Shown here: positions 1,315 through 61,564 of the stretch, one piece after another
Numbering within the stretch: position 1 is the stretch's first letter
Layout of the letters: each line of letters begins with the position of its first letter
From: Odiellus spinosus
Lineage: Eukaryota > Arthropoda > Arachnida > Opiliones > Phalangiidae
Assembly: GCA_963920705.1 (NCBI GenBank)
Contig: OY987232.1
Coordinates: 13,703,726 to 13,767,725 of the forward strand
Reading direction: 5' to 3'
DNA: 64,000 nt
The notes under the pieces: model-generated
Seen by the model: the letters and a program-made list of their open reading frames with translations, nothing else
The model's database searches: none
What the model was told of the DNA's origin: nothing
Program-made: the position numbers and the translations under genes

Positions 1315-1431
1315 GAAATATGTAGGCCTACATTTATTAATTGCTTTCAACACAGTCGAAGAATAGCGGCGAAGCCTGGTGGTAATCCGATAATCGATTT
1401 GCACTCTACCACAAGTTTTTGGGGTCCAATT

Positions 1432-1560
1432 AAAGGGAGAATGCAACCTAAATCGATTCCTTATCGTTTAAATAGGCATAATACAACAGAATTGTTTTTT
1501 TTTTGTAATTTAAAATTTACAGTCAAAATAGGCTTAGCTATATTCATGGAGATATCCTTT
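1432..1560. mobile_element. Family D foldback element, partial copy
   Basis: It begins with the family's outer end, AAGGGAGAATGCAACC. It carries the GTTTAAATAGGC and AATAGGCTTAGCT blocks seen in the copies at 10.7, 11.6, 13.4, 35.8 and 56.2 kb. It ends about 33 bp downstream (in the gene's direction) of the exon 2 donor of receptor GRe. Confidence 0.6.
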
Positions 1561-1592
1561 AACGTTTGAGTTTCGTCTTTATAAATTTTTAC

Positions 1593-5473: not shown

Positions 5474-5559
5474 TTTAATTGTACGTGATCGCCGGATGAC
5501 TCGCGTCTTCTAGCTGTAATCCAAAATGGTCCAATATAATAGTCACTCTGGGAAATGAG

Positions 5560-5604
5560 ATTTTCTATATATAGACTTCAGGGCGTTGTTACGTTATGAT
5601 TAAA
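5560..5604 (-). promoter_or_regulatory. Putative promoter of GRe
   Basis: On the gene strand, an AACAACGCCC block is followed by a TATATATAG box, about 85-130 bp before the ATG. The same TTA..A..AACGCCC block lies 102-126 bp upstream of GRc and GRd. This is comparison by eye; the start of transcription is not known. Confidence 0.45.
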
Positions 5605-13737: not shown

Positions 13738-13853
13738 AAAATACAGATCCTGGTGTAAAATTGGTGGGACTCGTCTCTATATAGTTAAGAAGCGACCTAT
13801 CAAACCAGTACACGTGAGCCTTGGCAACCTTAATTTGTAAATAACCAACTTAC

Positions 13854-16800
13854 TTCGGTGTTAGGATATTCACTAACGTTGCACATTATCAAAATTCTTA
13901 AAAGACTGAGGAATATCCTGAGAAGAGCTCGGGTAAAAAATTCTGAAGAAACCTCTGTGAAGGCCCTAATCGTTCTAGTTTTACCAACGAAGAATAATCC
14001 GAATGTTATGGTTAACAGACTGTCAAGTAAGCTAGTTGCTAACAGTGGAGACATGCTGTTGCTTCCTTCTTCGAACGTAGAGTGTAACGAAATCAACCAT
14101 ATCCTTTTCTCTTGGAGACACTTTTCAATTTTTGAACTTGAAACTTTCAATTCTCGCCATGTTTCGAAAGTTTCCGTTAGGTGTTTGTTGTATTCTCTCA
14201 TGACGTATTGAAAAAACACGCAATAGTAAATTAGCATTCCTTCGACGGCAAAATTGGTAATTGTTTCAACTGTTGACAATGTTATGTTCACAATCAATAG
14301 CAATGCTATTCCTTTCGAATAATAATAGGGGTAATATACATTCGTTTTAACATCGAGTACATCAACGGTGATATCTGCTAGTAACACGACAAGGTTCAGT
14401 ACCAAAAACCAACATCCAGATCTGATCATATGACGGTTAAAGCGAGGGCGTGTTGTTAAGTTATCTTCAATGTCTGAAATTTTGTTTTTTAAGTCTTGAA
14501 GAATGAAACGTCGCCTGAAGCGGATAACCAGTATTATGGTGCGATACACAAAATCTTCAAATAGGAAGAAAAATATCACCGTGACGGATTTAACTGCTGA
14601 TGTTCTTGGTCTGTTTTGGTAATAACTGGAGTCCCCTAAAACATAGTAACAAAAAGGATATGATGACAGTAGAAAGCGTATGACAGCTAAATATACAACC
14701 ATTTTCCTTAGCAACAACGTTTGTGTAAAACATAAACGACTGTATTACAGTATTTTTTATAAAGAATTGTTATTGGCTTGTATCGTAAATTTGACAAATA
14801 GCAAACTTATTTTTCTGGGCTGCTTCGAGACATAGCTCTTGGGCAACTTCGAGACGTAAAGCTCTTGGGTCACTTCGAGACGTAAAGCTCTTGGGTCACT
14901 TCGAGACGTAAAGCTCTTGGGTCACTTCGAGACGTAAAGCTCTTGGGTCACTTCGAGACGTAAAGCTCTTGGGTCACTTCGAGACGTAAAGCTCTTGGGC
15001 CACTTCGAGACGTAAAGCTCTTGGGCCACTTCGAGACGTAAAGCTCTTGGGCCACTTCGAGACGTAAAGCTCTTGGGCCACTTCGAGACGTAAAGCTCTT
15101 GGGCCACTTCGAGACGTAAAGCTCTTGGGCCACTTCGAGACATAAAGCTCTTGGGCCACTTCGAGACATAAAGCTCTTGGGTCACTTCGAGACATAAAGC
15201 TCTTGGGCCACTTCGAGACATAAAGCTCTTGGGCCACTTCGAGACATAAAGCTCTTGGGTCACTTCGAGACATAAAGCTCTTGGGTCACTTCGAGACATA
15301 AAGCTCTTGGGTCACTTCGAGACATAAAGCTCTTGGGCCACATCGAGACATAAAGCTCTTGGGCCACTTCGAGACATAAAGCTCTTGGGTCACTTCGAGA
15401 CATAAAGCTCTTGGGCCACTTCGAGACATAAAGCTCTTGGGCCACTTCGAGACATAAAGCTCTTGGGCCACTTCGAGACATAAAGCTCTTGGGCCACTTC
15501 GAGACATAAAGCTCTTGGGTCACTTCGAGACATAAAGCTCTTGGGCCACATCGAGACATAAAGCTCTTGGGCCACTTCGAGACATAAAGCTCTTGGGCCA
15601 CTTCGAGACATAAAGCTCTTGGGTCACTTCGAGACATAAAGCTCTTGGGTCACTTCGAGACATAAAGCTCTTGGGTCACTTCGAGACATAAAGCTCTTGG
15701 GCCACATCGAGACATAAAGCTCTTGGGCCACTTCGAGACATAAAGCTCTTGGGTCACTTCGAGACATAAAGCTCTTGGGCCACTTCGAGACATAAAGCTC
15801 TTGGGCCACTTCGAGACATAAAGCTCTTGGGCCACTTCGAGACATAAAGCTCTTGGGTCACTTCGAGACATAAAGCTCTTGGGCCACTTCGAGACATAAA
15901 GCTCTTGGGCCACTTCGAGACATAAAGCTCTTGGGCCACTTCGAGACGTATAGCTCTTGGGCCACTTCAAGACGTATAGCTCTTGGGCCACTTCGAGACA
16001 TAAAGCTCTTGGGCCACTTCGAGACATAAAGCTCTTGGGCCACTTCGAGACATAAAGCTCTTGGGCCACTTCGAGACATAAAGCTCTTGGGCCACATCGA
16101 GACATAAAGCTCTTGGGCCACATCGAGACATAAAGCTCTTGGGCCACATCGAGACATAAAGCTCTTGGGCCACATCGAGACATAAAGCTCTTGGGCCACT
16201 TCGAGACATAAAGCTCTTGGGCCACTTCGAGACATAAAGCTCTTGGGCCACTTCGAGACGTATAGCTCTTGGGCCACATCGAGACATAAAGCTCTTGGGC
16301 CACATCGAGACATAAAGCTCTTGGGCCACATCGAGACATAAAGCTCTTGGGCCACATCGAGACATAAAGCTCTTGGGCCAGTTCGAGACATAAAGCTCTT
16401 GGGCCAGTTCGAGACATAAAGCTCTTGGGCCAGTTCGAGACATAAAGCTCTTGGGCCAGTTCGAGACATAAAGCTCTTGGGCCAGTTCGAGACATAAAGC
16501 TCTTGGGCCAGTTCGAGACATAAAGCTCTTGGGCCAGTTCGAGACATAAAGCTCTTGGGCCAGTTCGAGACATAAAGCTCTTGGGCCAGTTCGAGACATA
16601 AAGCTCTTGGGCCAGTTCGAGACATAAAGCTCTTGGGCCAGTTCGAGACATAAAGCTCTTGGGCCAGTTCGAGACATCTCTCGGGGCGATTTCGCGTCAT
16701 GGCATGGCTCTTAGGTCACTTGGAGACGAATCTAATTTCTAAGTAGCTCGTTATCTAACTCACACCAAAACAGACGTTGAAAACTAAAATTGTATCTATA

Positions 16801-17342: not shown

Positions 17343-17585
17343 CCACTTATTATTGATATGTTTGTGTTAAAAGCGAAAATTAATTAGCTTTTTTTCTCTT
17401 CCCACTTGTTATTCTTATGTTTGACCTATTTTGTATATGGAATATGCATTTATAAAGTGCTTTGGTAAACTATACGTTTCAGTAGGCATTGGCAACTACT
17501 TTTTTCTAAATATGAGGCTCTACATTGTGTATCAATACGCCTCAGCTTTCCCCATAATGCAGAAAAGTGGCCATTTGCTTTAACA

Positions 17586-19070
17586 GCGGAAAAGCGACGA
17601 CCATTTTGTTTGAATAGCTGAAAAGCGACGACCATTTTGTTTGAATAGCGGAAAAGCGACGACTATTTTGCTTGAGCAACGGAAGAGAGACGGCTATTTG
17701 CTTGAACAGCGGAAAAGCGACGGCTATTTGCTTGAGCAACGGAAGAACGACGACCAATTGCTTGAGCAACGGAAGAACGACGACCAATTGCTTGAGCAAC
17801 GGAAGAACGACGACCAATTGCTTGAGCAACGGAAGAACGACGACCAATTGCTTGAGCAACGGAAGAACGACGACCAATTGCTTGAGCAACGGAAGAACGA
17901 CGACCAATTGCTTGAGCAACGGAAGAACGACGACCAATTGCTTGAGCAACGGAAGAACGACGACCAATTGCTTGAGCAACGGAAGAACGACGACCAATTG
18001 CTTGAGCAACGGAAGAGGGACGACCAATTGCTTGAGCAACGGAAGAGGGACGACCAATTGCTTGAACAGCGGAAGAGGGACGACCAATTGCTTGAACAGC
18101 GGAAGAGGGACGACCAATTGCTTGAACAGCGGAAGAGGGACGACCAATTGCTTGAACAGCGGAAGAGGGACGACCAATTGCTTGAACAGCGGAAGAGGGA
18201 CGACCAATTGCTTGAACAGCGGAAGAGGGACGACCAATTGCTTGAACAGCGGAAGAGGGACGACCAATTGCTTGAACAGCGGAAGAGGGACGACCAATTG
18301 CTTGAACAGCGGAAGAGGGACGACCAATTGCTTGAACAGCGGAAGAGGGACGACCAATTGCTTGAACAGCGGAAGAGGGACGACCAATTGCTTGAACAGC
18401 GGAAGAGGGACGACCAATTGCTTGAACAGCGGAAGAGGGACGACCAATTGCTTGAACAGCGGAAGAGGGACGACCAATTGCTTGAACAGCGGAAGAGGGA
18501 CGACCAATTGCTTGAACAGCGGAAGAGGGACGACCAATTGCTTGAACAGCGGAAGAGGGACGACCAATTGCTTGAACAGCGGAAGAGGGACGACCAATTG
18601 CTTGAACAGCGGAAGAGGGACGACCAATTGCTGAACAGCGGAAGAGGGACGACCAATTGCTTGAACAGCGGAAGAGGGACGACCAATTGCTCGAGCAACG
18701 GAAGAGGGACGACCAATTGCTCGAGCAACGGAAGAGGGACGACCAATTGCTCGAGCAACGGAAGAGGGACGACCAATTGCTCGAGCAACGGAAGAGGGAC
18801 GACCAATTGCTCGAGCAACGGAAGAGGGACGACCAATTGCTCGAGCAACGGAAGAGGGACGACCAATTGCTCGAGCAACGGAAGAGGGACGACCAATTGC
18901 TCGAGCAACGGAAGAGGGACGACCAATTGCTCGAGCAACGGAAGAGGGACGACCAATTGCTCGAGCAACGGAAGAGGGACGACCAATTGCTCGAGCAACG
19001 GAAGAGGGACGACCAATTGCTCGAGCAACGGAAGAGGGACGACCATTTGCTCGAGCAAGGGAAGATCTAC
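17586..19070. repeat. 30-bp minisatellite, about 48 copies
   Basis: Head-to-tail units with core GACGACCAATTGCTTGA. Homogeneous blocks follow one another: imperfect starters, about 9 units with GAAGAACGACG, 2 units of the same with GAAGAGGGACG, about 20 units with GAACAGCGGAAGAGGG, and about 12 units with CTCGAGCAACGG. One unit near 18631 has a 1-bp loss. Because 30 is a multiple of 3, frames stay open on both strands for hundreds of codons (for example LLEQRKRDDQ repeated). These follow from the period and are not annotated as genes. Confidence 0.97.
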
Positions 19071-19381
19071 TTAAGCCTTGAATAGTTTCAGATTTTCGTA
19101 AATTTATTATGGAAACTTTATTTTTAAGTAGTGTAGCTCCTAATCCTCCTCCATAGATAAGATAAATCTTAAATTGTGGTACCATTGGATTACCATTGGA
19201 TTACCAAAACACCATGCACTACTTGGAATCAACAGCACGTTCGATTTTATTATTGATTGCTATGCTCATACGTATTGTGTTACTTATGGTATAATGTTGT
19301 CCCTTATTTTTTTGGCCATCCATACGCAAGAGATTAACCTTTCAACTTAGTAGGAATATATATTGTAAAACAAATACTAAC

Positions 19382-20428
19382 CTCATTAGACGGGTAATCT
19401 CCAATAATACATAGAATGATAAGTTTAAGTTTGCTGATCAACATTTTTAGAAATACCCTGCTCGTGGCGTCTTCGTATTTCATGTGGATTATTCTGGACT
19501 TGTCGATGTAAAATATACCAAAGCATGCCATTAACAAACTGTCCAATACGCTCATAGCTATCAGGACCGACATAATTGTACAAGCTTTCTGAAACAACGA
19601 GTTGATTTCAATGAGACGCAATCTCAATTTTTGAATTCCTTCGAAATAAAATTTAGAATCCAAATTTTCTTCTTCGAAAAAAACAGTTAAAGCTTCGTTG
19701 TATTCTTTGATGACGTATTTGAAGAACAAACTGTAATATATTAGCAATCCTTCTATGGCAAAACTCACGATTGTTTCGATGAGTGATGACAGGAAATTTA
19801 CTGTTAAACATATCGCGAAACCATTCAAGTTATAGTACGAAATATATCCGTAATAATTACTGACGTCAATCGCGCAAAACGAAACCAAAACAATGACGTT
19901 CAGAACCAAAAACCAAAATCCAGATTTCGTCATACGACGGTTAAAACGACTTGGATAAGTAAGATTATTTTCAATGTCTCGTATCTTTAATTTCAAGCCG
20001 GAGATTAAAAAACGACGTCTATAACTGAAAATGAATGTCAAAGCTTGATATACGAAATCTTCGAAGAAGAAAAAACCTATCACGGTGAACAGTTTGGCTC
20101 GCGACACTTCTTCGAAACGGTGAATATATTGTTCCCGTGATTTTCCATCTTCATCGGCTTCTTCAGTTTCGTTTGCCGTGGTCATGTCGATAGTCGTCAA
20201 GGTGCTACTATAGTTCAGAGTATTATTAGGTGAAATAAAACCGTCACCGTAGCGGTAAAGGTTGAAGGGGTTTTCCATTGCGTAAATTAACAATTTCAGT
20301 ATCAGAACAACAAACCAGAAGATATTCGGTAGCCAGGTTTTAAGATGAAAACTTAGTTTTCGATTCGACACTGGGTAAATTCCCATAACGTGAAGTAAAA
20401 CTGTAAATAATTTGTAAGAAACAGGCAT
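19382..20428 (-). CDS. GR-like receptor cassette GRc (one large exon)
   Basis: The most complete single-exon member: 349 codons from ATG at 20428 to the donor GAG|GTTAGT at 19382, phase 0. Hydrophobic segments lie at about residues 7-20, 33-50, 111-136, 169-187, 203-238, 284-308 and 327-345. Between the second and third is a Ser/Thr/Asn-rich stretch with NNT, NYS and NET sites. A conserved NLTYPSRFNRRM motif is at 155-166, and the exon ends GDYPSNE. The pattern LRLRLIEINSLF followed by a membrane segment and a final acidic E is what I expect of arthropod GRs, whose last 60-80 residues (last membrane segment, TYhhhhhQF) would lie in a further exon. None was found before the next cassette. It has neither of the introns seen in GRb or GRd/GRe. 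Confidence 0.7.
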
Positions 20429-20531
20429 CTTATCTTTCTTTAATCAGGTAAATTTAGTAGTAACTTGTCCCTATCACTTACAAACACGAAATGGTACAAA
20501 TGTAGAAGAAAAAATGCACTGACATTTATAT

Positions 20532-22028: not shown

Positions 22029-24654
22029 CTCATTAAACGGATAATCTCCAATAATACATAAAATGAAAAGTTTAAGCATTCCAATAGACATTTTTAGGAC
22101 TATTCGGTTCAGGGCTTCGGCGTTATGCATCGCAGATACGCTGTATTTTTCGATGTAAAATATGCCAAAACATGCCGTGAGCAAACTATCTATAACGCTC
22201 ATGCTTAACAAATTCGACATAATTGATACAGATTTCTCAAACGAAGAATTTATCTCAACGAGACGCAATCTCCATTCTTGAAGTTCTTCCAAATTTCTTT
22301 TACAATCGTAGTTTTCTTTAAAGGAAAAAGAGTAATCAAGACAAAATTTTGGCTTAGTTATAATTGAAAATCGTTCAGTTTTTCATTTTACGTTAATTAT
22401 TTTAAATGGTATACAAGAAAAGGTTTGTAAAACTAACTGACGGCTTTATTTATCAGCACGAGTATATGAAAACTCTCAATAAAAGTATCCATCTGTTATG
22501 CTATGTACACGGACCCGCATCCGTCAGCAATTAAAGAGGCGAGTATGGCCGGAGGCGAAAAAATATCGCGGGAATGGAAATTTTTCAATGGGCAACTCGC
22601 CTAAATGGTGATTTGTCGCACCTATTATCAAGCGAACCATAAACGCTATCAGGTCACGGTTTTCATTTAAATTTGAATTGAAATCTTCTTTGGTTCATGA
22701 TGCAATTTTGATAATTATAGCACGTGAGATTAGCGAATCTTGTTTAAAAATAACTTATCATGATTTGATCATTTCCGTACCAATTATCTCACGTTCTAAT
22801 ATCGCTAAATTCTTCAACTTTACTTCCGACGAACAGTAAAAATCAGACAAATTTCGTGGTATAATTTGACCAAGTTTAAGTTAAATTTTTCTCTAGTTAT
22901 GATAAGAAACTTATATTATAACGATGTTTTACGCGTAAACTCGAAGATGTCGCCACGATAGGCTATTATCCGAGAAGCGTCACCGTCTGGCCTACATCTT
23001 GGCCACCTGCCTCGAGTGGTGGGACACTGGGGAAAGGAGTAAGAAAGAGTTCAGTAGACTGAGAAGTAAATCATATCATTTGCTAATTAACTATAACAAC
23101 AATCGCCAACGATATCGGTTTCTTTTTGTGAATCCAGACTTCTACAAATTCTTCCACATTCAATCGTCTTGCCATTTAAAATTTAAATAACAAATGAACG
23201 TGGTCAAACTCAAAGATAAAAAACTGCAGCTTTGTAACCACTTAGATCACGAGGTCAGCTCTATGACCTCTAGATCTAATTCTTTCCTCGTTGGTCAAGG
23301 CTTCCGTTTTCCCCGTAAATTGGCGGAAAGTTCCCTCTCAAAAAGCTTGGCAATCAGGCCCAACCCTCGCTTGTTCTGGCCAATGAAAACCAGCCTTAAC
23401 TTGTATCGCTACTAAACTTGGGCCACACGTGAAGAAACTAAATTTTAGTGTGTAAAAATACTTCTTTAATCTATCCCCTATTTTTAAAATCTCCCTGCTT
23501 CCTAGATAATACATTTTAGGAAGCAGATGTGTTTATGAGTCTGTAATTTTGTCTTTCTGCGCTTGAAGCAAAAAGGCTCGTTTAAATTCTTCCCGCTTCG
23601 TTGGAGGAATGATGTTAGTCGTCTGCTTAAAGTGATTACTTTGTCGACAGCAGTGTTATAAATTTAAAGAGGTCGAGAATTTTACCGCTTCTAAATCACC
23701 CTTTTATTCCCAGTTGGTGCTGACAGTCATTCGGGTTAAAAATACAAACATTACATGACCACATCCAAGCAAGGATTTTTATGGTCGATAATGTATTAAA
23801 TTAATAACCTTATTATAACGTAAATTGAAAAATTGAAAACGAGCTATTGTAATTAGTTTTAACAATGAAATACCTTTAAGTAATGAGTCGAAAAACCCCA
23901 TCAAATTTTCGTTGTAGTCACTGATGACGTATTTGAAAAACAAACTGTAATATATTAACAAACCTTCTACGGCAAAACTCCCGATTGTTTCGATAATTAA
24001 AGATAAACAAGTCACAGTCAAGTAGATCACGACACGATGGACGGGCATGTATTTAAAATCCATACTTTCTTGAAAGGCATCACCGATCTCAAAGCCGAAA
24101 AACAAGCCGAAGACGATGACATTCATAGCCAAAAACAAAATACCGCATTTCATCATTCGACGATTAAAACGACTGGGATAAGTTAAATTTCTTTCAATGT
24201 CTCTGATTTCTAATTTCAACGCGGATATTACGAAACGACATCTATAACCAAAAATGAAGATCATAGCTCTATAAACGTAATCTTCTAAGAAAAAGAACAG
24301 AATCGCGGTGTATATTTTCGCTGTCGATATACGATGTTCGTTACGGTGATGTTGAAGTTCATCGTATTCGTCTTCGCGTGATTCCATTCCATTTGCATCG
24401 TAATCTTTTGTAGGTACGGTGGTGTTCGTGACAAACACGACATTTGTATTGTTCGCCGTATTGTTCGGAGTGATGTGCGTGTAATCAAAGAAACCAAAAA
24501 ATTGTATATCAACGAAAACTTTGAGTATCACAATACCTAACCAGAAGATATTAATTATCCACGTTCTAAGATAAAAATATAATTTGTGATTCGACACGGG
24601 ATAAATGCCCATTAAATGTAATAAAACCGTAAATAGTTTGTAAGACACCGGCAT
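22029..24654 (-). CDS. GR-like receptor cassette GRd (two exons seen)
   Basis: Gustatory-receptor-like protein, minus strand. Exon 1 is 23874-24654 (ATG at 24654, MPVSYKLFTVLLHLMG, 260 codons plus one base) and ends AAAG|GTATTT. Exon 2 is 22029-22315, with acceptor CCTTTAAAG and donor GAG|GTAAGT. The join gives SLLK-ENYDCKRN, matching the unsplit GRc sequence at the same place (FFEEENLDSKF). The visible product is 355 residues and ends GDYPFNE. Read through, exon 1 stays open about 30 codons past the donor, so the paralogue and the acceptor decide the boundary. The intron (about 1.6 kb) contains a family I copy. The last transmembrane exon was not found between here and GRc. Confidence 0.67.
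22600..23070. mobile_element. Repeat family I, copy in GRd intron
   Basis: Shares TATCAAGCGAACCA, CATGATGCAATTTTGATAAT, CGTACCAATTATCTCACG and CGAAGATGTCGCCACGATA with the copies at 1 and 24.9 kb. No coding capacity. Borders are approximate. Confidence 0.6.
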
Positions 24655-24755
24655 CTTTAATGTGTTATCTCGTGAATTTCGCCCGTTACACTAAAACTTG
24701 CCGCTTTCAGTTAGAAAGACGAAATGTGTCAAGGGAAGAGGAAGTGTTATTGAAT

Positions 24756-51076: not shown

Positions 51077-51836
51077 ACTACTTCGTAATTCCAATTACCT
51101 CCTCCCATGTTCTGTTTAGCCGTGTTAACTACTTGGCCCAGAGGATTGAGTATCTTGGTATGCATCAAATGGAAACCCATGTGGTTTCTGATAACACGGT
51201 AAAGCAAATTCTTTGCTTCACCACAAAAATCTGACTTTTTAAGTCATGAACTGTCTGGTTCTGTACAGTGGACTACTAGTTGACGTGCGGACTGGATTTA
51301 TATGGCCACCCCTCTCTTAATAATATATAACTGGATCCGGGCTGGGTTTCTGGCTTTTTTCAATGGCCCAGGCTCAGATTGGGTCTGAAAAAGCGGTCCT
51401 TGCAAGGGTCTGAACACTGCAGACATCCTTCCATTTTTTCCCCCCTGAATCCACCCCTTCTCGAAGTTCCGAATGCACCACCTAGCGCTTGCCGTGTGAA
51501 ACATTGTACAAACACAGACTAAAAACGGTTATGCCTAAATCGGTGGATGTTTGTAATTAAAGCCAAGAAGGGGTAGAAGTAAATAATTGCAAAATTAGCA
51601 GATAATTTATAATGCCAAATTCTTTTCGGTACTTGAAACCAATAAAACAAATATTTCATAACTTTGAACCTTTAATATCCTATAGACTGATATATTTGGA
51701 GTTTTAGCTACTTACATTAATCGTAGTATTACTTGAAATTTTCGTAACACTTTGAAGCTGATATTTTTGAAAATAAATTTGATTTTACATCTTTTATTAG
51801 CTATACCTTATTCCGGTCTTCCGAAATTTTCCAAAA

Positions 51837-53690
51837 ATGGATGAGATGGACCTTAGCATGACTTGTGTGAAAGAGGAACCGGTTGCCCTTCTCGACTCAA
51901 ATTATACAGAACCGAACAATATATTACCTGTCGTTGTAGACGTCACTGAATCAAGCTACATTATCCCAGATGACTTATGTTTTGTGGAAACAGACAACGC
52001 AACTTCGGAATCTGTTTTAGTCGAAAATGTGAAACAAGAAGATGATAATCCAAAAATCGTGAGCAATGTGAGAAATTTAAAAAATGTGAAGAATGCCAAG
52101 AATGTGATTAATGTGAAGAATGTTAAGAGTAAGAAAAGTTCTAAACAAAATATAAAAAAGACTGGAAAAAAGTCTAGAATGTTTAAATGTACTACATGCA
52201 AGTATTCTACTCAGTATTTAAGAAACTTTCGACGACACGAAAAAATCCATTCAGGCATTGAAAAGCCATTTTCATGCGAACTCTGCGCGAAATCCTTCAT
52301 AAACGAAAAAGTTTTAGAAAAACATATGGTTGCGCATTTAAAAGATAGGCCTTTTAAATGCGAGCAATGTTCTGGATCCTACAAAACGAAAGAGCACTTA
52401 TTGATTCACGAGCGTAATGTTCACGTTGATGGCAGGCCTTTTAAATGTACTCAGTGTGACAAGTGTTACAAGACTAGCGCTAGAATGAAATTCCACCTAA
52501 AGGCGGTGCACACTACCGCTAAGGTTCAATGTGAAATCTGCGGAGATGTTTGCAAAACTAAATATAGTCTAGCCGTACATAAAAAAACTGTACATTCCTC
52601 GGAAAAGCCATTCAAATGTGATTATTGCGATTTTTCGTCGAAGAAAAAATGGACTCTTAAAAATCATTTATCACGTCATGGTACGGTGAAAGAATTTACG
52701 TGCGACCAATGCCCCTATTCCACTTTCACAAAGTTTGAGCTAATCAGACACCAAAAATCACGTCACGAAGGTGACGAAAGTACGAAGAGAAAGCCTGGTC
52801 GTCCGAGTTCTAACGGGGAAACGCCAGGATTACAGAGTAAGCCAACTACTCGCATCTGGCAGAATTTACGCAAGTTTAAGTGTGGTCAGTGCGATTACGC
52901 GGCACCCGTTAACGGTATGTTGAAAGTCCACATGCAAGTACATTCTAATCTACGACCCTTTTTATGCGATCAATGCGCTAAACCTTTTAAAACCAAACAT
53001 TGTTTAAATATACATATGAAAGTAAAACATACGGAAGAAAGGCCTCATAAATGTGATCAGTGTCCCATGGCTTTCAAAACTACAAGCTCTTTAACGTATC
53101 ATAGGATTTTAAAACATACCAGTGAAAGACCTCATACCTGTGATATTTGTACCAACACGTTTAAAACCAAAGGCCTATTGAATATGCACATTAAAAACGT
53201 GCATCCTGATGGTAAACCGTTCAAATGTGATAAATGCGAAAGCGCTTTTAAGGCCAAGTTTTCTTTAAATTTCCATAATCGAACGGTACATTGTTACGCT
53301 AGACCTTATCCTTGTGATCAATGCGAAGGCTCTTTCAAATCAAAAAACAGCCTACGTGCGCATAAGATTCAAATACATTCGACGGAAGTACCTTTTCAAT
53401 GCGAACATTGCGACTACTCCACGAAGAAAAAGTGGAGCTTTAAAAACCATATGTATCGTCATACGGGGCAAAGACCGTTTAAGTGTGACGAATGCAATTA
53501 TTCCGCTATTGAAAAGGCTACCTTAAAAAGACACAAATTAAAGTGGCATAATGACGATCAGCCATCAGAACCATACGCTTCTGAAGATTCCAACACGGAT
53601 GTAGATGAGACCATATACGCTTGTGATCATTGCGACCTTTCTTTTGGCGATGATTCGGAACTGAACTCGCATAAATCACTTCACAGCTAG
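51837..53690 (+). CDS. C2H2 zinc-finger protein, sixteen fingers in two blocks (ZNF2)
   Basis: Probable nuclear DNA-binding regulator, 617 residues in one exon from ATG at 51837 (context CCAAAAATGG) to TAG. The N-terminus is acidic, followed by a Lys/Asn/Val-rich stretch (NVKN repeats, then KSKKSSK). Block 1 has seven fingers, from FKCTTCKYST to FTCDQCPYST. A linker contains KRKPGRPSS, an AT-hook-like motif. Block 2 has nine fingers, from FKCGQCDYAA through FQCEHCDYSTKKKWSFKNH and FKCDECNYSA to a separate last finger, YACDHCDLSF. The near-final fingers of both blocks share CD(Y/F)S(S/T)KKKW, implying internal duplication. It resembles ZNF1, 7.6 kb away on the same strand. A TTTTATTAG acceptor-like site lies about 35 bp upstream. 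Targets are unknown. Confidence 0.9.
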   Translation: MDEMDLSMTCVKEEPVALLDSNYTEPNNILPVVVDVTESSYIIPDDLCFVETDNATSESVLVENVKQEDDNPKIVSNVRNLKNVKNAKNVINVKNVKSKKSSKQNIKKTGKKSRMFKCTTCKYSTQYLRNFRRHEKIHSGIEKPFSCELCAKSFINEKVLEKHMVAHLKDRPFKCEQCSGSYKTKEHLLIHERNVHVDGRPFKCTQCDKCYKTSARMKFHLKAVHTTAKVQCEICGDVCKTKYSLAVHKKTVHSSEKPFKCDYCDFSSKKKWTLKNHLSRHGTVKEFTCDQCPYSTFTKFELIRHQKSRHEGDESTKRKPGRPSSNGETPGLQSKPTTRIWQNLRKFKCGQCDYAAPVNGMLKVHMQVHSNLRPFLCDQCAKPFKTKHCLNIHMKVKHTEERPHKCDQCPMAFKTTSSLTYHRILKHTSERPHTCDICTNTFKTKGLLNMHIKNVHPDGKPFKCDKCESAFKAKFSLNFHNRTVHCYARPYPCDQCEGSFKSKNSLRAHKIQIHSTEVPFQCEHCDYSTKKKWSFKNHMYRHTGQRPFKCDECNYSAIEKATLKRHKLKWHNDDQPSEPYASEDSNTDVDETIYACDHCDLSFGDDSELNSHKSLHS

Positions 53691-53879
53691 ACTCTAATAG
53701 AACGTAATTCGCTTCAACTGAATTGAAGCTTAGGCAGGTTGATTCATGAAAAGGCTGTCTCAATTTTAAATTTGGGGCCTTAATATAAATTTATATGGTA
53801 ATTTTAAACCATACTAAATGCTACACATCATAAGTTAAGATTTCTGTTATATTATGACACATTTTGACTGCCTATCTAA

Positions 53880-53893
53880 CCCCAGTAGCAAAG
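53880..53893 (+). repeat. Left terminal inverted repeat of the transposon
   Basis: CCCCAGTAGCAAAG, followed after two bases by CAGTCGGCCCGACTG and further GTCGG motifs at 53923 and 53948, plus several CCGAC copies up to 54100. Confidence 0.6.
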
Positions 53894-54663
53894 AACAGTC
53901 GGCCCGACTGTATATATTTTGGGTCGGCCCTACTGTCCATCGAAAAAGTCGGGCCGACGGGTACCATGTCCAAGCCCCTGCCCTGTTTATTCATTACCGA
54001 AAATGAAGTTCCCTTTACCACTTGCCGACCTATAAATGACTACTTAAAATACAGTCGGTGCCAGGTCGTTTTTAAGCTTCTGGACTGCTCCCCGACCTTA
54101 AAATGACCAATTATTTTACTAGTGTTTTTGCGGTAGGTAGATAGGCTAGTTTTAGCATAACAACACCCTCTCCAGACTAGTAATTTTACCCTCTATTACT
54201 TAGTTGGTTACAGTTCGTTTGGGTTTATATACAACCCTTTTTGCACTAGCATTTTAACAGGATTTTTGGGGTTTATAAACAGCCCATATTCTTCCAACCC
54301 AACCATATTTTTATTGGTAGTTTTAATACTCATTTGGCAGTCGGTAAACAAGCAATGTTGCCAAAATGTTCCCATTATTAGCTAGTTCATTAGGTGGGTA
54401 AATAACAGAAACAGCTGGTAAACTTTATACCTGATAGCCAGCTGTGGCCTCCAATAATCCTGAAAGAAAAGTCACCCTTTGCTATTTATAATAGGTAAAT
54501 ATATATAATGGCTTGCTCCACTTGTTTCTATGGCGTCACCTGCCTTCTACTACTAGTGACGATTTCGCTAAACTCAACAAGTTGACCAAGCCAAAAAAGC
54601 ATTTTATATATTCACCAATTGAATCAATTCGACAATAATAAAAATTAAAAGATGAAAAATTCA

Positions 54664-54669
54664 TTTATT
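54664..54669 (-). terminator. Polyadenylation signal of the second transposon gene
   Basis: AATAAA on the minus strand, about 23 bp after the TGA stop of the DUF4806-like gene. Confidence 0.6.
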
Positions 54670-54691
54670 TTTGTAAAAAAAAACACGCTTT

Positions 54692-57523
54692 TCATTGCTG
54701 TTGTTTATTTTCGCGTAGTTTGCGCCCCCCATTCTGGTCTGCCTTGTGCTTAACAAACGCTTTCATGACTTTTTCCATTTCAAAATCGGTCGCTTGCGTA
54801 TGCTTTGGCTGTCCTCTTACAGCACCTTTAAGGAGTAAAATACAATTATAAATATAAAAGTTTAAATTTACTGCTAACGATCATGATTAAATTTTTACTT
54901 TTAATGACATTAATCAAAGTCAATTTTCTCAAAGATTCTTTCCCGTTAGCTCCAATCCAATTAAACTGGTCAATGAGTGGCTTTGGTATGACCTCATATA
55001 ATATCCGTCGAGTTGTATTTTTGACATTGTTGCCACCCCATGATGACAATTTTCTGATCTGTGAAAAAATTATTTTATTAGAATTTTATGCAAATACCAA
55101 ACTAGAACAAATGAAATCAGCCTACCATTTGTTTACTAAATTCCTTGTCACTCATACGGTCTTCCAAGTCTTTAAGTTGAGCAAGAGTTTTTAGTGGGAA
55201 TTGAATATCACACATTTCATCATTTTCAAAGGTTTCCTTTTCGAGCAAAACGGAGGAAATATGTCGTACAGAAGTTGAAATATTAGCAACTTGCTGTTTA
55301 AGATCATTTAAAGTATACAGAACTTGTTTCTGGAATTCTATGATTTTCATAAAAAATTTCCATTATTTACTGTTTAACACGTAATTTGCAATGTAACAGA
55401 AAAAGCTAGGCTTACTTTGCTCAGAAATAACCTTATCCGATTTTGAAGTAGAAAATGTATTTCCATTTTTCGAAGAAGATTGTTTTTGTTGGAAGGACCT
55501 TTTACTTTTCAAAAATCTGAAATTTTCTTCATCTTCGCTATCACTATGACTTTGATTGGAAATATCCCTCATACTCAGTTTATTAGTACCTTAAGAGTAA
55601 CATAAATTTAGATATTAAATTATTTCCTAGAAGGACTTTATTTTTACTGTTATCATAAGTATATATTATACGTATGTCCACTTCCGTTGTCAGTCCATAT
55701 CTCATTGTTTAGTTTTTTATGTGGCCTCACCTGGACTTTGCGGAAATCTATACGTTGTTTCACACATACTTGTGATACATACTTATTGATCGTACATTAT
55801 AAACTTATGCTTTCATTAAATTTATATTAATTTTACTTACTGCAATTGCGATGCTTTGAGCTTCCCAAATCAGTTTCAGTATCGCTACTTTCTGTACTAT
55901 TGTTTGTGAAAGTTTTGCTAGTTTCTGTCAGTTTTTTATATGTTGGACTTTTCTTCCTATGTTTTGGGGTACTCTCTCCTCGCTTTTCCTTGTCGTTATC
56001 CCTTTTTCTTGATCTTGAGTCATGTCGCTTATCATTTTCAGGTTGTTTTCTTTTAAAACAGAACGTAGGAGTCTTATTTGATGATGTTGAAGCAGCGTCC
56101 CCTCCAAATTGTTCCAAGCATTTGACACTGGGTTTTCCTGCATGATAAATAACATAAATAATTAATTGGAATAATAGCCCGTTGATTTATATTTTGGTAA
56201 AGTCATTACGTTCATCAAAAAACAATTTACAAATTTTTATTAAACTAGAAATAAATTTTTAACTTAACTTACTCGAAAAGTAGGCTTCGCTGGGATTCAC
56301 CGGGGATTTACATTTTTTTATTAGATGCTCCGAACAATAAGCGATCTCATTGTGCCGAGTAAAGAGGCGCGCTGATTACATGGAGCATCTATTACAAAAT
56401 TTTTTAAATCCCCCGTGAATCCACACTTTTCAAGTAAAATAAAAATAGATTTCTAATTTAATTTTATTTTGTATATTTTTTTAATAATGAAATAGGCCTA
56501 TTAAAGTTTAAGGAATCGATAAAAACACCAGTTGTCAGACTTCATTCTACCTTTAAAAGGAATGTTATTCCTAAACCAAATAGACAATACAATTCCTTCA
56601 AGTCAGTCCAAATGAGGTATTTATCACTCATTATAATGTTTAAACCGTAGAATGTTGAAAAAGGATTTATAAGCTCCCAAATTTTACCTTTTGTAGGAAT
56701 GTCATTAACAGTAGCTTGTTTGGTAAAGTCATCCACAGGAAGTATTTCTTCGTCAAATGAATTTTCTTTGTTATGTACATCAGAAAAATTCTTGCAATTA
56801 TCTTTTAGAAAATCTTCAATATGTTCATTGTGATGTGAATCAATTAATTCGATATTTCCGCCTTCAGCCTCAACTGTGTTATCGTCTAAAAATATATTCT
56901 ATTAAAACCACTTTGTAAAGTAGGCTTAAATTTAATGAGCTTACCATTAAGCACAAGTACAGGAAACATAGGTACAGCTGGCAGTTCATATTCAGGTTTA
57001 TTTTTTCGCCCACTTGTTTTCAAATATTTTTCTGTACCATATAAGTATTCGTCAAGTTGAGAGTCATTATATGGCTTATTTTTGGTTCTACGCTTCTTAT
57101 TGGCCTCTTCATTATCAGTGCTTTTACAAACTTCTATATCCTCGCGGGATCTTTTCGCCTTATCCTGAGCTTTTTCATAATCGTCTGAAATAAATTATAA
57201 ATTAAATTCTTACATTTTACTGCAAAAAGCAATCTACTAGCCAAATAATTACTTGTTGAAAGAAGTACATCACAGTCATACTGTGGCCAAGTATCATCCG
57301 CTGGTATTGAATTTTTCAGAGCTTTGGAGAAAAAAGATGGCCCTCCTTTGTTTGGCAAAAAACATTTTTTTCCGTCTTCTCGCAACCAAATTGAAAGCAC
57401 CACTTCAATTGTATCATCGTCAGTGAAAAAAACAGCGGCATATTTCTGCGAATTCAGAATAAAATCATTAGGCAAGCGCCCCATCAAAAAGTCCTTCATA
57501 AAATCTATACCAAAACTAGTCAT
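54692..57523 (-). CDS. Transposon second gene, DUF4806-like C-terminus, eight exons
   Basis: Complete 561-residue protein. Exons (minus): 57253-57523, 56945-57184, 56688-56885, 55841-56137, 55416-55589, 55126-55337, 54899-55058 and 54692-54825. All borders are GT/AG and the frame holds. The N-terminal part (residues 15-90) has YAAVFFTDDDTIEVV and a tryptophan-containing domain often found in DUF4806 proteins. The middle is charged and Ser/Lys-rich (KKRRTKNK, RSRKRDNDKEKR), probably nuclear and disordered. The end (about 430-515) has FPLKTLAQLKDLEDRM, WGGNN and WIGANGKESLRKL, matching my memory of DUF4806. The start lies 8 bp after the transposase stop. It is probably an accessory protein of the element, but the function is unknown. 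A family D insertion lies in intron 3. Confidence 0.75.
56222..56556. mobile_element. Family D foldback element, copy 5, inside the transposon
   Basis: Arms AAACTAGAAATAAATTTTTA and GTAGGCTTCGCTGGGATTC are mirrored on the right (GTGAATCCACACTTTTC, ATAGGCCTATTAAAG). Central GATGCTCC and GGAGCATC are inverted. It sits between exons 3 and 4 of the second gene and leaves splicing signals intact. Confidence 0.7.
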
Positions 57524-57531
57524 ACCGAAAT

Positions 57532-59643
57532 TTAATGTAACATCGGAATGACGGCCATTCCACCTTTATGTGGTAGGGCAACACACTTTTGGCTAATAAA
57601 TGATAACTCAAAAACACTAATTTTTGAAGCTAAATCTGAAGCCCTAACAATCCCAAGCTGAGATGATTTCATAGGATAATTAAACAAGTCCTTAATTTCT
57701 GTATATTCTTGGCCAAAAAGTAAAATACGTTTGTCCTCGTGTTTAAAAATATTTATAATTTTAACATAATCACCATTTTCTAGTAAGAAAAAACAGTCAC
57801 TAGGGCAGGTAGACACTATGAATCTCTCACACTTAATTTTTTTGAATGATTTGCCATTTTTAGGAAGATTTCTGCGGTGATTGGAGTTGTAATCAAAGTC
57901 ATAGGGGCTTATAAATTGTACTTCATTTTTTGATAATAATAAGGTTAGGTCAAAATTTTCTTTCTCGCTTAATCGTTTGCAAATTTGTTGCAAGGGCTTA
58001 TTTGGAGTCCTTAATTCTCTCTTGATAAAATGAAGTTCGTTTTCAAAGGAAAAGGCACTAAATCCATCAAGAGCCCCGTATTTTAAAACGTCCAAATATA
58101 AATGTAATAAACTATGCACGTTCATAACTACAAATTTTTCACCATATAATTTGGGTATTTCATCCACAAAAATTTTAATTAGATGCGACGCATAACCAGA
58201 ATGTGTTTTGCAGAGTTTGGGACTAGAAAAAATATAAATGGCGCAATGAAACAACCTAAAGTGCTTAAGAACATTTACCCCAAGAACCCCAATCAACACA
58301 ATAGGACTAGTATATAATAAAAACTGCCTTAATTCAGTCCCTTTCCATTTATCAATGTGTTTAAGAGCTCTTGGTTTTCGCGCAAAATCACTTGGGATAT
58401 AAAATCTGGCATTTTTAAGCCTTTCTGATATTGTAGAAATATTTTTCTGACCCAAACGAACAGAAAAAGGTCCTTGTCTCATCCAAAAATATGCTAATCT
58501 GCGCATAACTCCTAAACATACGAGATGCAAATAGTCATATGGGAACTGGCTAACCATCCCAATGTTTAGTTCGACTAACGGACTATGTTCTCCTATAGAG
58601 TGATGATCGTCGTCTAACTTATCGAGAAAAGACTTGTCAGTTCGCCTTTCCGAATCTAAGCCTATGAAAACCATACGATTTTCTCTATACTCTCCTTCAA
58701 TAACGCATTTGTCACAGGAACTATATCCCGTGTGCCCTTTCGTACACTTAATAAATGCTTTTGCAGGGGTGTCTAAAATAAAGGGCCCTTTTAAGTTCAC
58801 GGTATATATTTTTCCATCAAGAGGAAATCCGTTCCGTTCTAAATCTTGGAGCTCGTTTATAAAATCCCCAAGATAATCTTTCAAGGGATATGGTTTGGTT
58901 TCCCCACAAAATAAGGCAACCATAAAGGGCTTTCCCACTAGCCCTTGATCAAAATTAAAAACTGAGACCAAAATTGGCCAAAATTCTCTATTAGCACTTT
59001 TTGATATCGGAACTCCATCAATATTAACCGCTAATGATATTTCCGGTTCGTAAGGGTAATTGCATATGAGAAATTTAGAAAGACCATTTTTTATTCCATA
59101 ATAAACATATTCTCCTGACCCAAAGGTTTTAACTTGAGAAACTGCACTCTTAGTCTTTAAAACTGTTCGACTGTCTTTAGCCACTTCGAAACCATTTTTA
59201 CGTAACAAAGCTAGCAAATCATTCAAAGCAACATGGGTAATGCGATTTTTCAATGCCCAAAGTGCCAATTCGGATTGAAAATCTAGTGATTGTGTTTTAA
59301 ATTCATCTCTTTTACTACTCCCTAAATTTTCATAATTGAATTGAAAGTTATCGTTATCCAGTTCAGATTCTATGTTATCGTTATTTTGTTGAGATTCTAA
59401 GTTATCGTAATCTAGTTCAGATTCTATTTCATTATTATAAAGATCAAATTGTTCTGATATTTCAGTATCACTAGACACTATCTCCAGATTTGGACAGATT
59501 TCATAATTAAGCCCATCGCTATCTATATTTCTATCATTCTCTGCCTGGCTAGATAAATTAGAATCAGTGTTATCATTATCAAGCAGTTGCTCATACAGTT
59601 GTTTGTTAATTCTATTTCGTTGCCTCTTTGAAATTGAATCCAT
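57532..59643 (-). CDS. CACTA-like (tnp2 family) transposase
   Basis: Intact 703-residue ORF from ATG at 59643 to TAA at 57532, predicted to cut and join transposon ends in the nucleus. Residues 1-115 are acidic and Asn/Asp-rich. A helical segment, HVALNDLLALLRKNG, is at 137-151. The core begins with VNIDGVPI (Asp209), then FWPILVSVFN, then a long G..P..L..F..EL pattern and DTPAKAFIKC (Asp291), with Cys300, Cys310 and Cys313 as a likely zinc site. YLHLVCLGV, HSLLHLYLDV and FSAFSFENELHF follow and would supply further conserved acidic and His residues. These match the tnp2/Transposase_21 layout of CACTA elements as I know it. The sequence TCTTACTAG, 8 bp before the ATG, looks like an acceptor, so a 5' untranslated exon is likely, perhaps ending at the donor at 60653. 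Confidence 0.8.
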   Translation of the reverse strand: MDSISKRQRNRINKQLYEQLLDNDNTDSNLSSQAENDRNIDSDGLNYEICPNLEIVSSDTEISEQFDLYNNEIESELDYDNLESQQNNDNIESELDNDNFQFNYENLGSSKRDEFKTQSLDFQSELALWALKNRITHVALNDLLALLRKNGFEVAKDSRTVLKTKSAVSQVKTFGSGEYVYYGIKNGLSKFLICNYPYEPEISLAVNIDGVPISKSANREFWPILVSVFNFDQGLVGKPFMVALFCGETKPYPLKDYLGDFINELQDLERNGFPLDGKIYTVNLKGPFILDTPAKAFIKCTKGHTGYSSCDKCVIEGEYRENRMVFIGLDSERRTDKSFLDKLDDDHHSIGEHSPLVELNIGMVSQFPYDYLHLVCLGVMRRLAYFWMRQGPFSVRLGQKNISTISERLKNARFYIPSDFARKPRALKHIDKWKGTELRQFLLYTSPIVLIGVLGVNVLKHFRLFHCAIYIFSSPKLCKTHSGYASHLIKIFVDEIPKLYGEKFVVMNVHSLLHLYLDVLKYGALDGFSAFSFENELHFIKRELRTPNKPLQQICKRLSEKENFDLTLLLSKNEVQFISPYDFDYNSNHRRNLPKNGKSFKKIKCERFIVSTCPSDCFFLLENGDYVKIINIFKHEDKRILLFGQEYTEIKDLFNYPMKSSQLGIVRASDLASKISVFELSFISQKCVALPHKGGMAVIPMLH

Positions 59644-60652
59644 GTTCAGTCCTAGTAAGACAATGACTATAGGATTAGATTTCTAATAATATTAGAAAAC
59701 GTTCGCATTGTTCACAAAAAATGTTTTGGATTTTCAAGTTTAACTCACTAAAATATGGCTAATTTATAATAAAATCATTGATACCATAAGCAGTTAGAAT
59801 TCGATATTCTGAACCATACAAAAACTCACGCTAACCTAAAATATTTACAAGAAAAAAACAAATATCTGCTAATGTTCTTAGTACATTGAATGCGTGTCAC
59901 GATTTAGTCTTCTAGCTGCTTACGGTATAAATTATTTTATTGTATATTAGCGAAATATGAATGGGCTATATATATAGGGCTTTAGCGACTGCTTTCCTAA
60001 AAATATAATATTCACTTTATCACCTAAACCAGAGAGTGGGAACGTATGGGCATCACCCTCGCGTATGCCTTTCAGTTAGTATACAGTTATTCAAAAACCC
60101 AAAAAAAAAAAAAAAAAATCTCAAATCCCCGCCTCGGCGCCTCGAGAGCAAGGCGACTTCAGACCCGCTCCCCCGAAAAGCAATGTATGTTCAGGCACTT
60201 TTTTCCATATGGCCAAACGTGGGCGTAGTTATACTACATTTTGTACCTCGTAGAAAAAGAAGTAGTCCGGACAAAGTACCTGAGTACAAGTTAAGCCTAT
60301 GCCACCACTAGCTTCTATTATTAATCCAAGGCCTAACACTTAAAGATACTTTTTTTAGAACTCTACGAACTAATTTATTTAAGGTATTTCGAAAACATTG
60401 CGAACGATCTGAGCCACAAAAGATTAAAATTATACAAAAGAAAATACACTTACTTTAAGTGAAGATGAATTCATTCTTAATGATTGTATCCAGTGCAGCC
60501 TCGTACGCCTTACCCAAATTTTTCAATGTTTGGTTAAAGTTTAAAACCACCTGAAGCGCGAGGTACAAATATGTTCGATACGGCTTGACTATTATTAATA
60601 AATCTCGATTAGATTGAGATGTATTTGTAAATATATTAAGATAAAAACTTAC

Positions 60653-60730
60653 CAAAAAAGTCGTATGGGCCAACTATCTAAGTGTATCCGAAGCATAAAA
60701 TGGCGGACTGTATAGCACGGGTGGCTGCTC
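60653..60730 (-). promoter_or_regulatory. Possible 5' untranslated exon of the transposase gene
   Basis: A strong donor, TTTTTTG|GTAAGT, lies at 60652/60653 on the minus strand, and an acceptor lies just before the transposase ATG near 59652. Joining them would give a 1-kb leader intron. Exon start is unknown. This is inference only. Confidence 0.3.
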
Positions 60731-61550
60731 AACAAGTTCAACGATGAAGAAAGGGGGAGAGATTTATTATCTCGTCAAGTGGGGGTATAAAAAAATCTCC
60801 ACGTGGCCGCACCTGGTGGCCGCGAGCATCGAGGAGGAAAAATACCCCCCTCCTTGAACAAATCAACAAACGTGGAAGATAAATACACGGAGAATAAAAG
60901 AGTTGAGTAGCAGCTCCGGCGCAGCTTGTTACGCTTTAGTTTAAAGCTTAGGTTTACCTTCTCGCAATATAAAGAAATTTCGCTCTAGGGTAATGAGCTA
61001 GCCGGAAGCTTGTATTAATTTTTTACGCGAGAGTTTCTACTCCTTCACTTTTATTCTCTATGATAGATATAACTTCCAAAACGAAATCACCCACCGACCT
61101 AATAATTTAAAATAAAAGAATACTACAATCGAATATTGCCGGAAATTTCATTACATACCCAAATTAATTGTCACATAATTAAATGATGTTAATGGATATG
61201 GTGGGTTTACTACGATCAGTTTTGCTATTTCTCGTAAAATAACTATTAAGTGTCATTTAAGTCCCGCCAATAGCAGACGAAAAATAACATCTCTGTCTAA
61301 GCCTTTGTATAAACGAATATAAAATGTGTAATAGTCGGGTTGCACGTAAATATTTTAGGCTGTACAACCACAGTCGGTTAAGAAGTTATTCCCATCTGTC
61401 AACCGGCTGTGACTGCAGTCCCTTTGGACCTACTCTCACCCGACTGTTATGCTCCATGTTATAGCCGGTATTGAGGGTAATTCTGTCCAAGAGCCGACCT
61501 GGACCACCAACCGACTGGTCCGACCTAGCCCCGACCCTTAAACGGACGGC

Positions 61551-61564
61551 CTATGCTACTGGGG
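61551..61564 (-). repeat. Right terminal inverted repeat of the transposon
   Basis: CTATGCTACTGGGG, the inverse of the left end with one difference. Inward lie AACCGACTGGTCCGACC, GAGCCGACC, CACCCGACTG and CACAGTCGG between 61.37 and 61.54 kb. Confidence 0.6.

What the first reader, a model, noticed from the sequence alone, without database searches (positions are those of the whole stretch)
53880..61564. Apparently whole CACTA-like element carrying a second, multi-exon DUF4806-like gene
Matching inverted ends, an AA repeat at both borders, GTCGG-rich subterminal zones at both ends, an uninterrupted tnp2-like transposase and a fully spliceable second gene together suggest a recently active two-gene transposon. 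The pairing of this transposase type with a DUF4806-like protein, and ends beginning CCCCAGTAGCA, are not an arrangement I recall as described.
Basis: partly seen in the sequence, partly recalled or inferred. Interest (0 to 1): 0.85.

Follow-up and report, generated by a model that had tools for sequence, protein, structure and literature searches.

The report
Two-gene jumping element with DUF4806 partner
This is a recently mobile DNA transposon whose enzyme gene is paired with a second gene for a DUF4806 protein, which probably helps it grip the transposon's ends; the kind of transposon is known from animals, but I found no description of this partner protein.

Summary
The genome (443 Mb) holds four more full copies with identical borders at other sites (three 99.96%, one 99.0% identical) and one deletion derivative. 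All six have 2-bp target duplications (five different sequences); two lie in satellite arrays where the empty site can be read. Across relatives 24 of 25 end pairs have 2-bp, none 3-bp, duplications.

Ends and duplication match TRC elements, the animal CACTA-related group of DeMarco 2006; a Tribolium TRC begins CCCTAGTAGCAC. The ends are not new.

Not found in print: a DUF4806 gene lies downstream of the transposase in 15 of 16 relatives read (one by motif only); in six families both proteins diverge in step. Splice signals suggest that the transposase lies inside intron 1 of the DUF4806 gene. CCGAC repeats (17) lie only in the outer ~475 bp of each end. DUF4806 is reportedly a BEN-type DNA-binding fold. 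Most likely it is the counterpart of maize TNPA and binds these repeats; binding is untested. New variant of a known kind.

The parts
53880..61564 (-). complete TRC/CACTA-like transposon, 7,685 bp (both genes read on the minus strand)
   Evidence: window copy plus four others with the same borders
53880..53890 (+). terminal inverted repeat CCCCAGTAGCA (11 bp)
61554..61564 (-). matching terminal inverted repeat (11 bp)
53878..53879 (.). left copy of the 2-bp target duplication, AA
61565..61566 (.). right copy of the 2-bp target duplication, AA
53898..54344 (.). left subterminal zone with 9 GTCGG/CCGAC sites
61094..61535 (.). right subterminal zone with 8 GTCGG/CCGAC sites
57532..59643 (-). transposase gene, single open frame, 703 aa, tnp2/Transposase_21-related
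60454..60474 (-). predicted leader exon of the DUF4806 gene (7 codons) ending at a strong splice donor
   Evidence: similar layout in the 60%-identity family (L013, L028)
57253..57445 (-). DUF4806 gene, exon 2 (conserved N-terminal domain); the alternative start at 57523 would extend it upstream
56945..57184 (-). DUF4806 gene exon
56688..56885 (-). DUF4806 gene exon
55841..56137 (-). DUF4806 gene exon (basic, unconserved middle part)
55416..55589 (-). DUF4806 gene exon
55126..55337 (-). DUF4806 gene exon, first part of the DUF4806 domain
54899..55058 (-). DUF4806 gene exon of 160 nt, second part of the domain; same length in L013, L016, L017, L020 and L023
54692..54825 (-). DUF4806 gene last exon with stop
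57446..60453 (-). proposed intron 1 of the DUF4806 gene, which contains the transposase gene
   Evidence: prediction only

Best explanation
An autonomous cut-and-paste transposon of the TRC (animal CACTA-related) group with two proteins. Shown from sequence: it has moved recently, makes 2-bp target duplications, has an intact transposase with conserved D, D, E and CxxC, and carries a DUF4806 gene that has stayed with this transposase through deep divergence. Inferred: a promoter upstream of the leader exon makes one pre-mRNA; left unspliced over its first intron it gives the transposase, spliced it joins the short leader exon to the DUF4806 exons. The DUF4806 (BEN-like) domain binds the CCGAC repeats near both ends, brings the ends together and helps load the transposase on the CCCCAGTAGCA termini, as maize TNPA and TNPD are thought to do. 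It may also regulate the element's own promoter, because one repeat zone lies on that side.
For: Mobility. Empty sites: a neighbouring satellite unit equals the single-copy junction at 38 of 38 bases (L010) and 37 of 38 (L012), while the two-copy junction has 13 and 10 mismatches; a relative (L020, TG duplication) has its empty site with a single TG beside L018. Transposase kinship: a profile of 8 relatives, L026 left out, finds a Transposase_21-positive frame of the same genome (L046) at 5e-58 over ~360 positions, the best of 200 shuffles at 0.45; at E up to 1, Pfam DUF4218 in 6 of 9 members (best 4e-6) and Transposase_21 in 2 of 9 (best 1e-4). Pairing: gene-2 sequence downstream on the same strand in 15 of 16 relatives read, L025 by motif only; 24 of 32 hit groups lie within 12 kb downstream of a transposase hit; distances of the two proteins in six families agree, Mantel r=0.955, 1 of 720 permutations. 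Splicing: a 3' splice site directly followed by the start codon in L017/L018, L020, L021 and L022; a 7-codon leader exon before a strong donor in the focal and the 60% family. Subterminal motif at both ends. BEN link: passage of PMC11075544 citing Pan et al. 2023, and weak profile matches to three BEND3 chains, E 0.11-0.14.
Against: DNA binding by this DUF4806 protein is not shown. The BEND3 matches are not significant, and the same list holds unrelated chains (Hax3 at 5e-5, a toxin component at 0.25, ribosomal L7 at 0.64). Against the more diverged copy L012 the DUF4806 exons show no constraint (11 of 1,686 sites, noncoding 32 of 3,877, p=0.62), unlike the transposase (4 of 2,106, all silent, p=0.0014). 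The most distant relative read (L026) shows no DUF4806 within the piece held, so the pairing may not be universal. CCAAC and CCAGCA in other families do not beat 95% of shuffles of the ends, and the L021/L023 family also has 6 CCAAC in its interior. No transcripts were seen.
Confidence: 0.65

Rival explanations
1. The transposon is as described, but the DUF4806 protein is a regulator (repressor, activator or chromatin factor) and not part of the transposition complex.
For: BEN proteins are mostly described as transcription or chromatin factors (abstract starts); the gene evolves loosely between close copies.
Against: The motif is enriched at both ends, not only on the promoter side, and the gene is kept with the transposase in 15 of 16 relatives read.
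Confidence: 0.25
2. The DUF4806 gene is a captured host gene or passenger riding in one family by accident.
For: DUF4806 also occurs in ordinary animal genes.
Against: Same position and strand in eight families; the same 160-nt exon in six elements with the focal one counted; congruent divergence in six families down to 34% transposase identity in the alignment (L024).
Confidence: 0.04
3. The copies are segmental duplications or assembly duplicates of an immobile locus.
For: Some relatives do share flanks: L013, L014 and L027 are one insertion, and C1:5886877 repeats L019's flanks.
Against: The 900-bp flanks of the five full focal copies show no similarity between copies at E 1e-3; the 12-bp flanks of the deletion copy differ too; two copies sit inside satellites with readable empty sites.
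Confidence: 0.01

Closest known systems
TRC elements (Transposons Related to CACTA; SmTRC1 and the Tribolium and Aedes elements, DeMarco et al. 2006, PMC1636069)
   Same: CCC-starting inverted ends (Tribolium CCCTAGTAGCAC), 2-bp target duplication, transposase with Transposase_21, spliced transcripts, tandem repeats inside
   Different: No DUF4806 protein is mentioned in the abstract, passages and sections seen; SmTRC1 is about 4.5 kb with 54-bp ends, here 7.7 kb with 11-bp ends
Maize En/Spm (CACTA)
   Same: Two proteins from one unit by alternative splicing, two reading frames in tandem (as told in PMC1636069); repeated motif near both ends (recalled)
   Different: CACTA ends and 3-bp duplications of the canonical group (recalled) are not seen here; TNPA is not known to me to be a DUF4806/BEN protein
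Spongebob (TRC element of Hydra and insects, PMC4298943, passages seen)
   Same: CCC ends, 2-bp duplication, assigned to TRC
   Different: Ends CCCAGCCAACATTGAC; the authors could not define its transposase because of stops or frameshifts
DUF4806/BEN domain proteins of animals
   Same: Pfam DUF4806 over cut-off
   Different: Here encoded by a transposon beside its transposase

Membership tests
TRC (animal CACTA-related) | inverted ends beginning CCC | tested here: met
   25 of 25 end pairs, but pairs were found by these ends; independent support: the borders of the five focal copies and of L021/L023 were read from where copies stop matching
TRC (animal CACTA-related) | 2-bp target-site duplication | tested here: met
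   24 of 25 end pairs, 21 of 22 after removing duplicated insertions; 3-bp 0 of 25; random pairing mean 3.1, maximum 9
TRC (animal CACTA-related) | transposase with or related to Transposase_21 | tested here: met
   by profile, 5e-58 to a Pfam-positive frame; the focal protein alone scores no transposase family in Pfam
canonical CACTA/En-Spm | ends beginning CACTA/CACTG | tested here: not met
   CCCCAGTAGCA
canonical CACTA/En-Spm | 3-bp target duplication (recalled) | tested here: not met
   0 of 25
canonical CACTA/En-Spm | accessory protein binding subterminal repeats | not testable with these tools
   repeats are present; binding needs a bench test
DUF4806 (PF16064) | Pfam score over cut-off | tested here: met
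   35.2 bits against 25; 6 of 6 spliced relatives scanned, of 7 spliced, over cut-off
BEN domain | BEN fold | tested here: inconclusive
   three BEND3 chains at E 0.11-0.14 among unrelated matches; no structure of this domain was predicted
Mirage and Chapaev (relatives of CACTA) | closer kinship of the transposase to these than to Transposase_21 | not tested
   no reference sequences were at hand

The most novel reading that the evidence does not exclude
DUF4806 is, at root, the TNPA-like end-binding partner of TRC transposons: a BEN-type DNA-binding protein whose gene wraps around the transposase in its first intron and whose recognition motif co-evolves with the element's ends. The many DUF4806 genes reported in Hydra, their enrichment in an ambrosia beetle and the set on zebrafish chromosome 4 would then be mostly transposon genes or their domesticated descendants.
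Probability: 0.4. Interest if true: 0.75.

Novelty: new variant of a known kind. Interest (0 to 1): 0.6.

Why it matters
It gives a concrete, testable role to a domain of unknown function that genome papers list without explanation: many copies in Hydra (PMC7642931), enriched in an ambrosia beetle (PMC13270666), four genes in a zebrafish sex-chromosome block (PMC11075544) (passages seen). It suggests that animal CACTA-like elements, like the maize ones, use a separate end-binding protein, but of BEN type. Four nearly identical copies with open frames make good candidates for a transposition assay in laboratory cells.

Tried and rejected
Six-frame search of the genome with the DUF4806 family found nothing, nor did its controls, probably because the domain is split by introns; replaced by a search with the spliced protein. 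Scans of viral and prokaryote contig collections with the transposase profile found no relative, so distribution outside this genome is untested. AlphaFold on the transposase alone gave mean pLDDT 32 and was not searched further; a model with relatives was not tried because the tool does not list these genome loci among allowed inputs. A PDB search with the transposase profile found nothing at E up to 1. Short elements with the exact 11-bp end: no excess over the reversed control (60 against 62; 52 against 49). A PDB profile hit to Hax3 at 5e-5 was rejected: no single stretch passes and the match is to its repeats. piggyBac was considered and rejected from recall (TTAA target, not seen).

Full report
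What is there. The window is G000:C8:13703726-13767725 of a 443 Mb, 286-contig genome that is held for searching. The element at 53880-61564 is a transposon in the strict sense: three further copies elsewhere in the genome are 99.96% identical over the full length and a fourth is 99.0% identical, and all four alignments start at base 1 and end at the last base. The 900-bp flanks of different copies show no similarity to each other at E 1e-3. The five copies have 2-bp direct repeats AA, AT, CT, AC, AT. A search with each 301-bp end found 7 left ends and 6 right ends; the extra pair is a derivative of 4,070 bp in C5 (L042) that lacks about element bases 1127-5799, has taken an insertion of about 1 kb, and has the repeat TA; the extra left end (L043) is a truncated piece.

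Empty sites. Two focal copies landed in satellite arrays. For L010 the junction with a single copy of the 2-bp repeat equals a neighbouring repeat unit at 38 of 38 bases, while the junction with both copies has 13 mismatches; for L012 the figures are 1 and 10 mismatches. For the relative L020 the unoccupied site with a single TG is found next to L018. Insertion with duplication of 2 bp is therefore shown, not only inferred.

Relatives. The transposase finds 62 scored matches, a lower bound. I fetched the four other focal copies and 16 relatives in about 10-kb pieces. By identity to the focal transposase the relatives form a class near 60% (L013, L014, L015, L027, L028), a class near 41-44% (L016 to L023), and three at 29-32% (L024, L025, L026). 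Exact CCCCAGTAGCA occurs 60 times and CCCTAGTAGCA 52 times in the genome; the reversed controls give 62 and 49, so there is no sign of many short elements with these ends. But 14 and 9 facing pairs less than 15 kb apart can be counted in those lists. With two pairs of the L021/L023 family, whose right end differs by one base, that makes 25 end pairs, all examined: 24 have a 2-bp duplication, none a 3-bp one, against a mean of 3.1 and a maximum of 9 when ends are paired at random. The one without is a 3.1-kb derivative in C6. L013, L014 and L027 have the same flanks and so are one insertion copied with its surroundings, and C1:5886877 repeats L019's flanks; counting each once leaves 21 of 22.

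The transposase. The focal protein alone matches no transposase family in Pfam. In the alignment of nine sequences the aspartate of NIDG (missing in L025), that of LDTPA, the CxxC after it and the glutamate of FEN are conserved; that these are the catalytic D, D, E is my reading from recalled knowledge of CACTA-type transposases. At E up to 1, six of nine members match DUF4218 (best 4e-6) and two of nine Transposase_21 (best 1e-4). A profile of eight members, L026 left out, finds a Transposase_21-positive reading frame of the same genome at 5e-58 over about 360 positions; the best of 200 shuffles has 0.45.

The second gene. On the minus strand, an eight-exon model with GT-AG introns codes for 561 aa; residues 438-512 score DUF4806 at 1.6e-8. 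For seven relatives I spliced the C-terminal part by alignment; six were scanned and all six pass the DUF4806 cut-off. The exon that holds the second half of the domain is 160 nt in the focal, L013, L016, L017, L020 and L023 elements and 156 nt in L024. Counting either the DUF4806 part or the conserved N-terminal part, 15 of the 16 relatives have the gene downstream on the same strand. Some of these are weaker: in L015, L022 and L027 only the N-terminal part was seen in the piece held, and in L025 only a motif of that part (CYWP with its surroundings). L026 shows nothing within the 9.9 kb held. The 15 are not independent; they form eight families. In a genome-wide search with the spliced protein (85 rows) I picked by hand 32 representative exon groups, often two for one element; 24 lie within 12 kb downstream of a transposase hit on the same strand, 8 do not. 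Held, seven of those eight lie within about 2.5 kb of one of the two terminal motifs, three of them inside facing end pairs, so they look like derivatives or remnants; C18:2760716 does not. The query is the focal protein, so unrelated host DUF4806 genes would be missed. For six families with both proteins (one of them with the transposase of L021 and the DUF4806 of L023; the 60% class left out because its transposases are broken), the two distance matrices agree with r=0.955, and only the true pairing among 720 permutations reaches that.

Where the second gene starts. My first model began at an ATG 8 bases after the transposase stop. Four of the 41-44% families (L017/L018, L020, L021, L022) instead show a 3' splice site directly followed by the start codon, which implies an upstream leader exon. 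The focal element has a splice acceptor at the homologous place (exon from 57445), and upstream of the transposase it has a 7-codon exon before the donor AAA|GTAAGTG; the 60% family (L013, L028) has a 7-codon exon before AAA|GTAAGTA. In both, this is the best donor with an open phase by a simple consensus score (8 of 9; the next has 7). I therefore think that the transposase sits in intron 1 of the DUF4806 gene, much as in maize Spm, where one unit is alternatively spliced into tnpA and tnpD and both proteins are needed (as told in PMC1636069). This remains a prediction.

Subterminal repeats. CCGAC/GTCGG occurs 17 times in the focal element, 9 in the left and 8 in the right outer zone, and nowhere in the 6.7 kb between; shuffles of the ends give 0.99 on average. 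As the commonest of all 5-mers it has 15 in the 400-bp ends, above the 95% point of shuffles (11) but below their maximum (17). The 60% family has the same motif at both ends, partly in arrays of 143-148-bp units, with a few in the interior; there its 16 exceed every shuffle (maximum 11). The L021/L023 family has CCAAC instead (6 in the first 500 bp, 10 or 11 in one bin near the other end, but also 6 in an interior bin), and L020 has CCAGCA (4 and 3). Neither beats 95% of shuffles of the ends, so the motif switch is suggestive only. That the maize TNPA site also begins CCGAC is recalled and may be coincidence.

Selection and age. Each of the three close copies differs from the window copy at 2 or 3 bases in 7,685. 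The more diverged copy L012 differs from the majority of the close copies at 4 of 2,106 transposase sites (all silent, plus an in-frame loss of two codons), 11 of 1,686 sites in the DUF4806 exons, and 32 of 3,877 elsewhere; the transposase is slower than the rest (p=0.0014), the DUF4806 gene is not (p=0.62). Compared codon by codon with the window copy, the DUF4806 gene has 5 silent and 7 altered codons, one change being private to the window copy. Over the longer span the two ends of the DUF4806 protein are conserved while its middle is not.

What is known. DeMarco et al. 2006 (PMC1636069; abstract, passages, sections 5 and 6) described TRC elements of animals with CCC ends and 2-bp duplications; their Tribolium element begins CCCTAGTAGCAC, almost the ends seen here. 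PMC4298943 (passages) adds Spongebob of Hydra and insects. So the element is a TRC. For DUF4806 the library holds four papers; I saw passages of three and only the listing of the fourth. [quoted passage not shown] 2023, which was not read here. The Hydra paper lists DUF4806 at 69 and 54 in its two Hydra species, in a table with many transposon domains, and names CMC among the largest transposon groups. A profile of the seven DUF4806 parts finds three BEND3 chains in the PDB at E 0.11-0.14, not significant and among unrelated matches. Searches for EnSpm with BEN domain gave 0 papers, for CACTA with BEN domain 2, of which the one checked was unrelated; a search for animal CACTA terms gave 0 and another 8 listings. 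I found no statement that TRC or CACTA elements encode DUF4806 within that library; Repbase was not available.

Verdict. A real, recent, whole transposon of a known kind, with a conserved DUF4806 partner gene that I did not find described, and a clear, testable hypothesis for its role. The DNA-binding role and the intron arrangement are inferred.

Noticed in passing
window 56293-56422: A short palindromic, MITE-like sequence lies in an intron of the DUF4806 gene (arms 56293-56319 and 56396-56422); the five full copies align through it, so it predates their spread.
   Followed up: partly
L042, between element bases 598 and 584: The deletion derivative carries an insertion of about 1 kb flanked by a roughly 15-bp repeated stretch of element sequence, perhaps another mobile element.
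   Followed up: no
G000 C6:4959423-4962518, C8:4781865-4784945, C261:5049395-5052468: Three facing pairs of CCCCAGTAGCA about 3.1 kb apart, two with a match to the last DUF4806 exon: a small, apparently non-autonomous family.
   Followed up: partly
window 14816-16677 and 17571-19065: Two long tandem arrays (26-bp and 30-bp units) are open in several reading frames; the long ORFs there are probably artefacts of the repeats.
   Followed up: no
window 51801-53690: A C2H2 zinc-finger reading frame with about a dozen fingers ends about 190 bp from the transposon's left border.
   Followed up: partly
window 4682-5509, 13830-14744, 19334-20443, 23779-24690: Four similar membrane-protein-like reading frames without a Pfam match at E<=0.001; they look to me like chemoreceptors of an arthropod.
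   Followed up: partly
L013, L017, L020, L022, L023, L028: Relatives carry minisatellites (units of about 23-34, 88, 143-148 or 247 bp) in the interior and near the ends.
   Followed up: partly
G000 C1:6505297, C183:165284, C16:14652671 and five others: Eight Transposase_21 matches in the genome do not coincide with the 62 matches of the focal transposase; whether they also carry DUF4806 was not examined.
   Followed up: no
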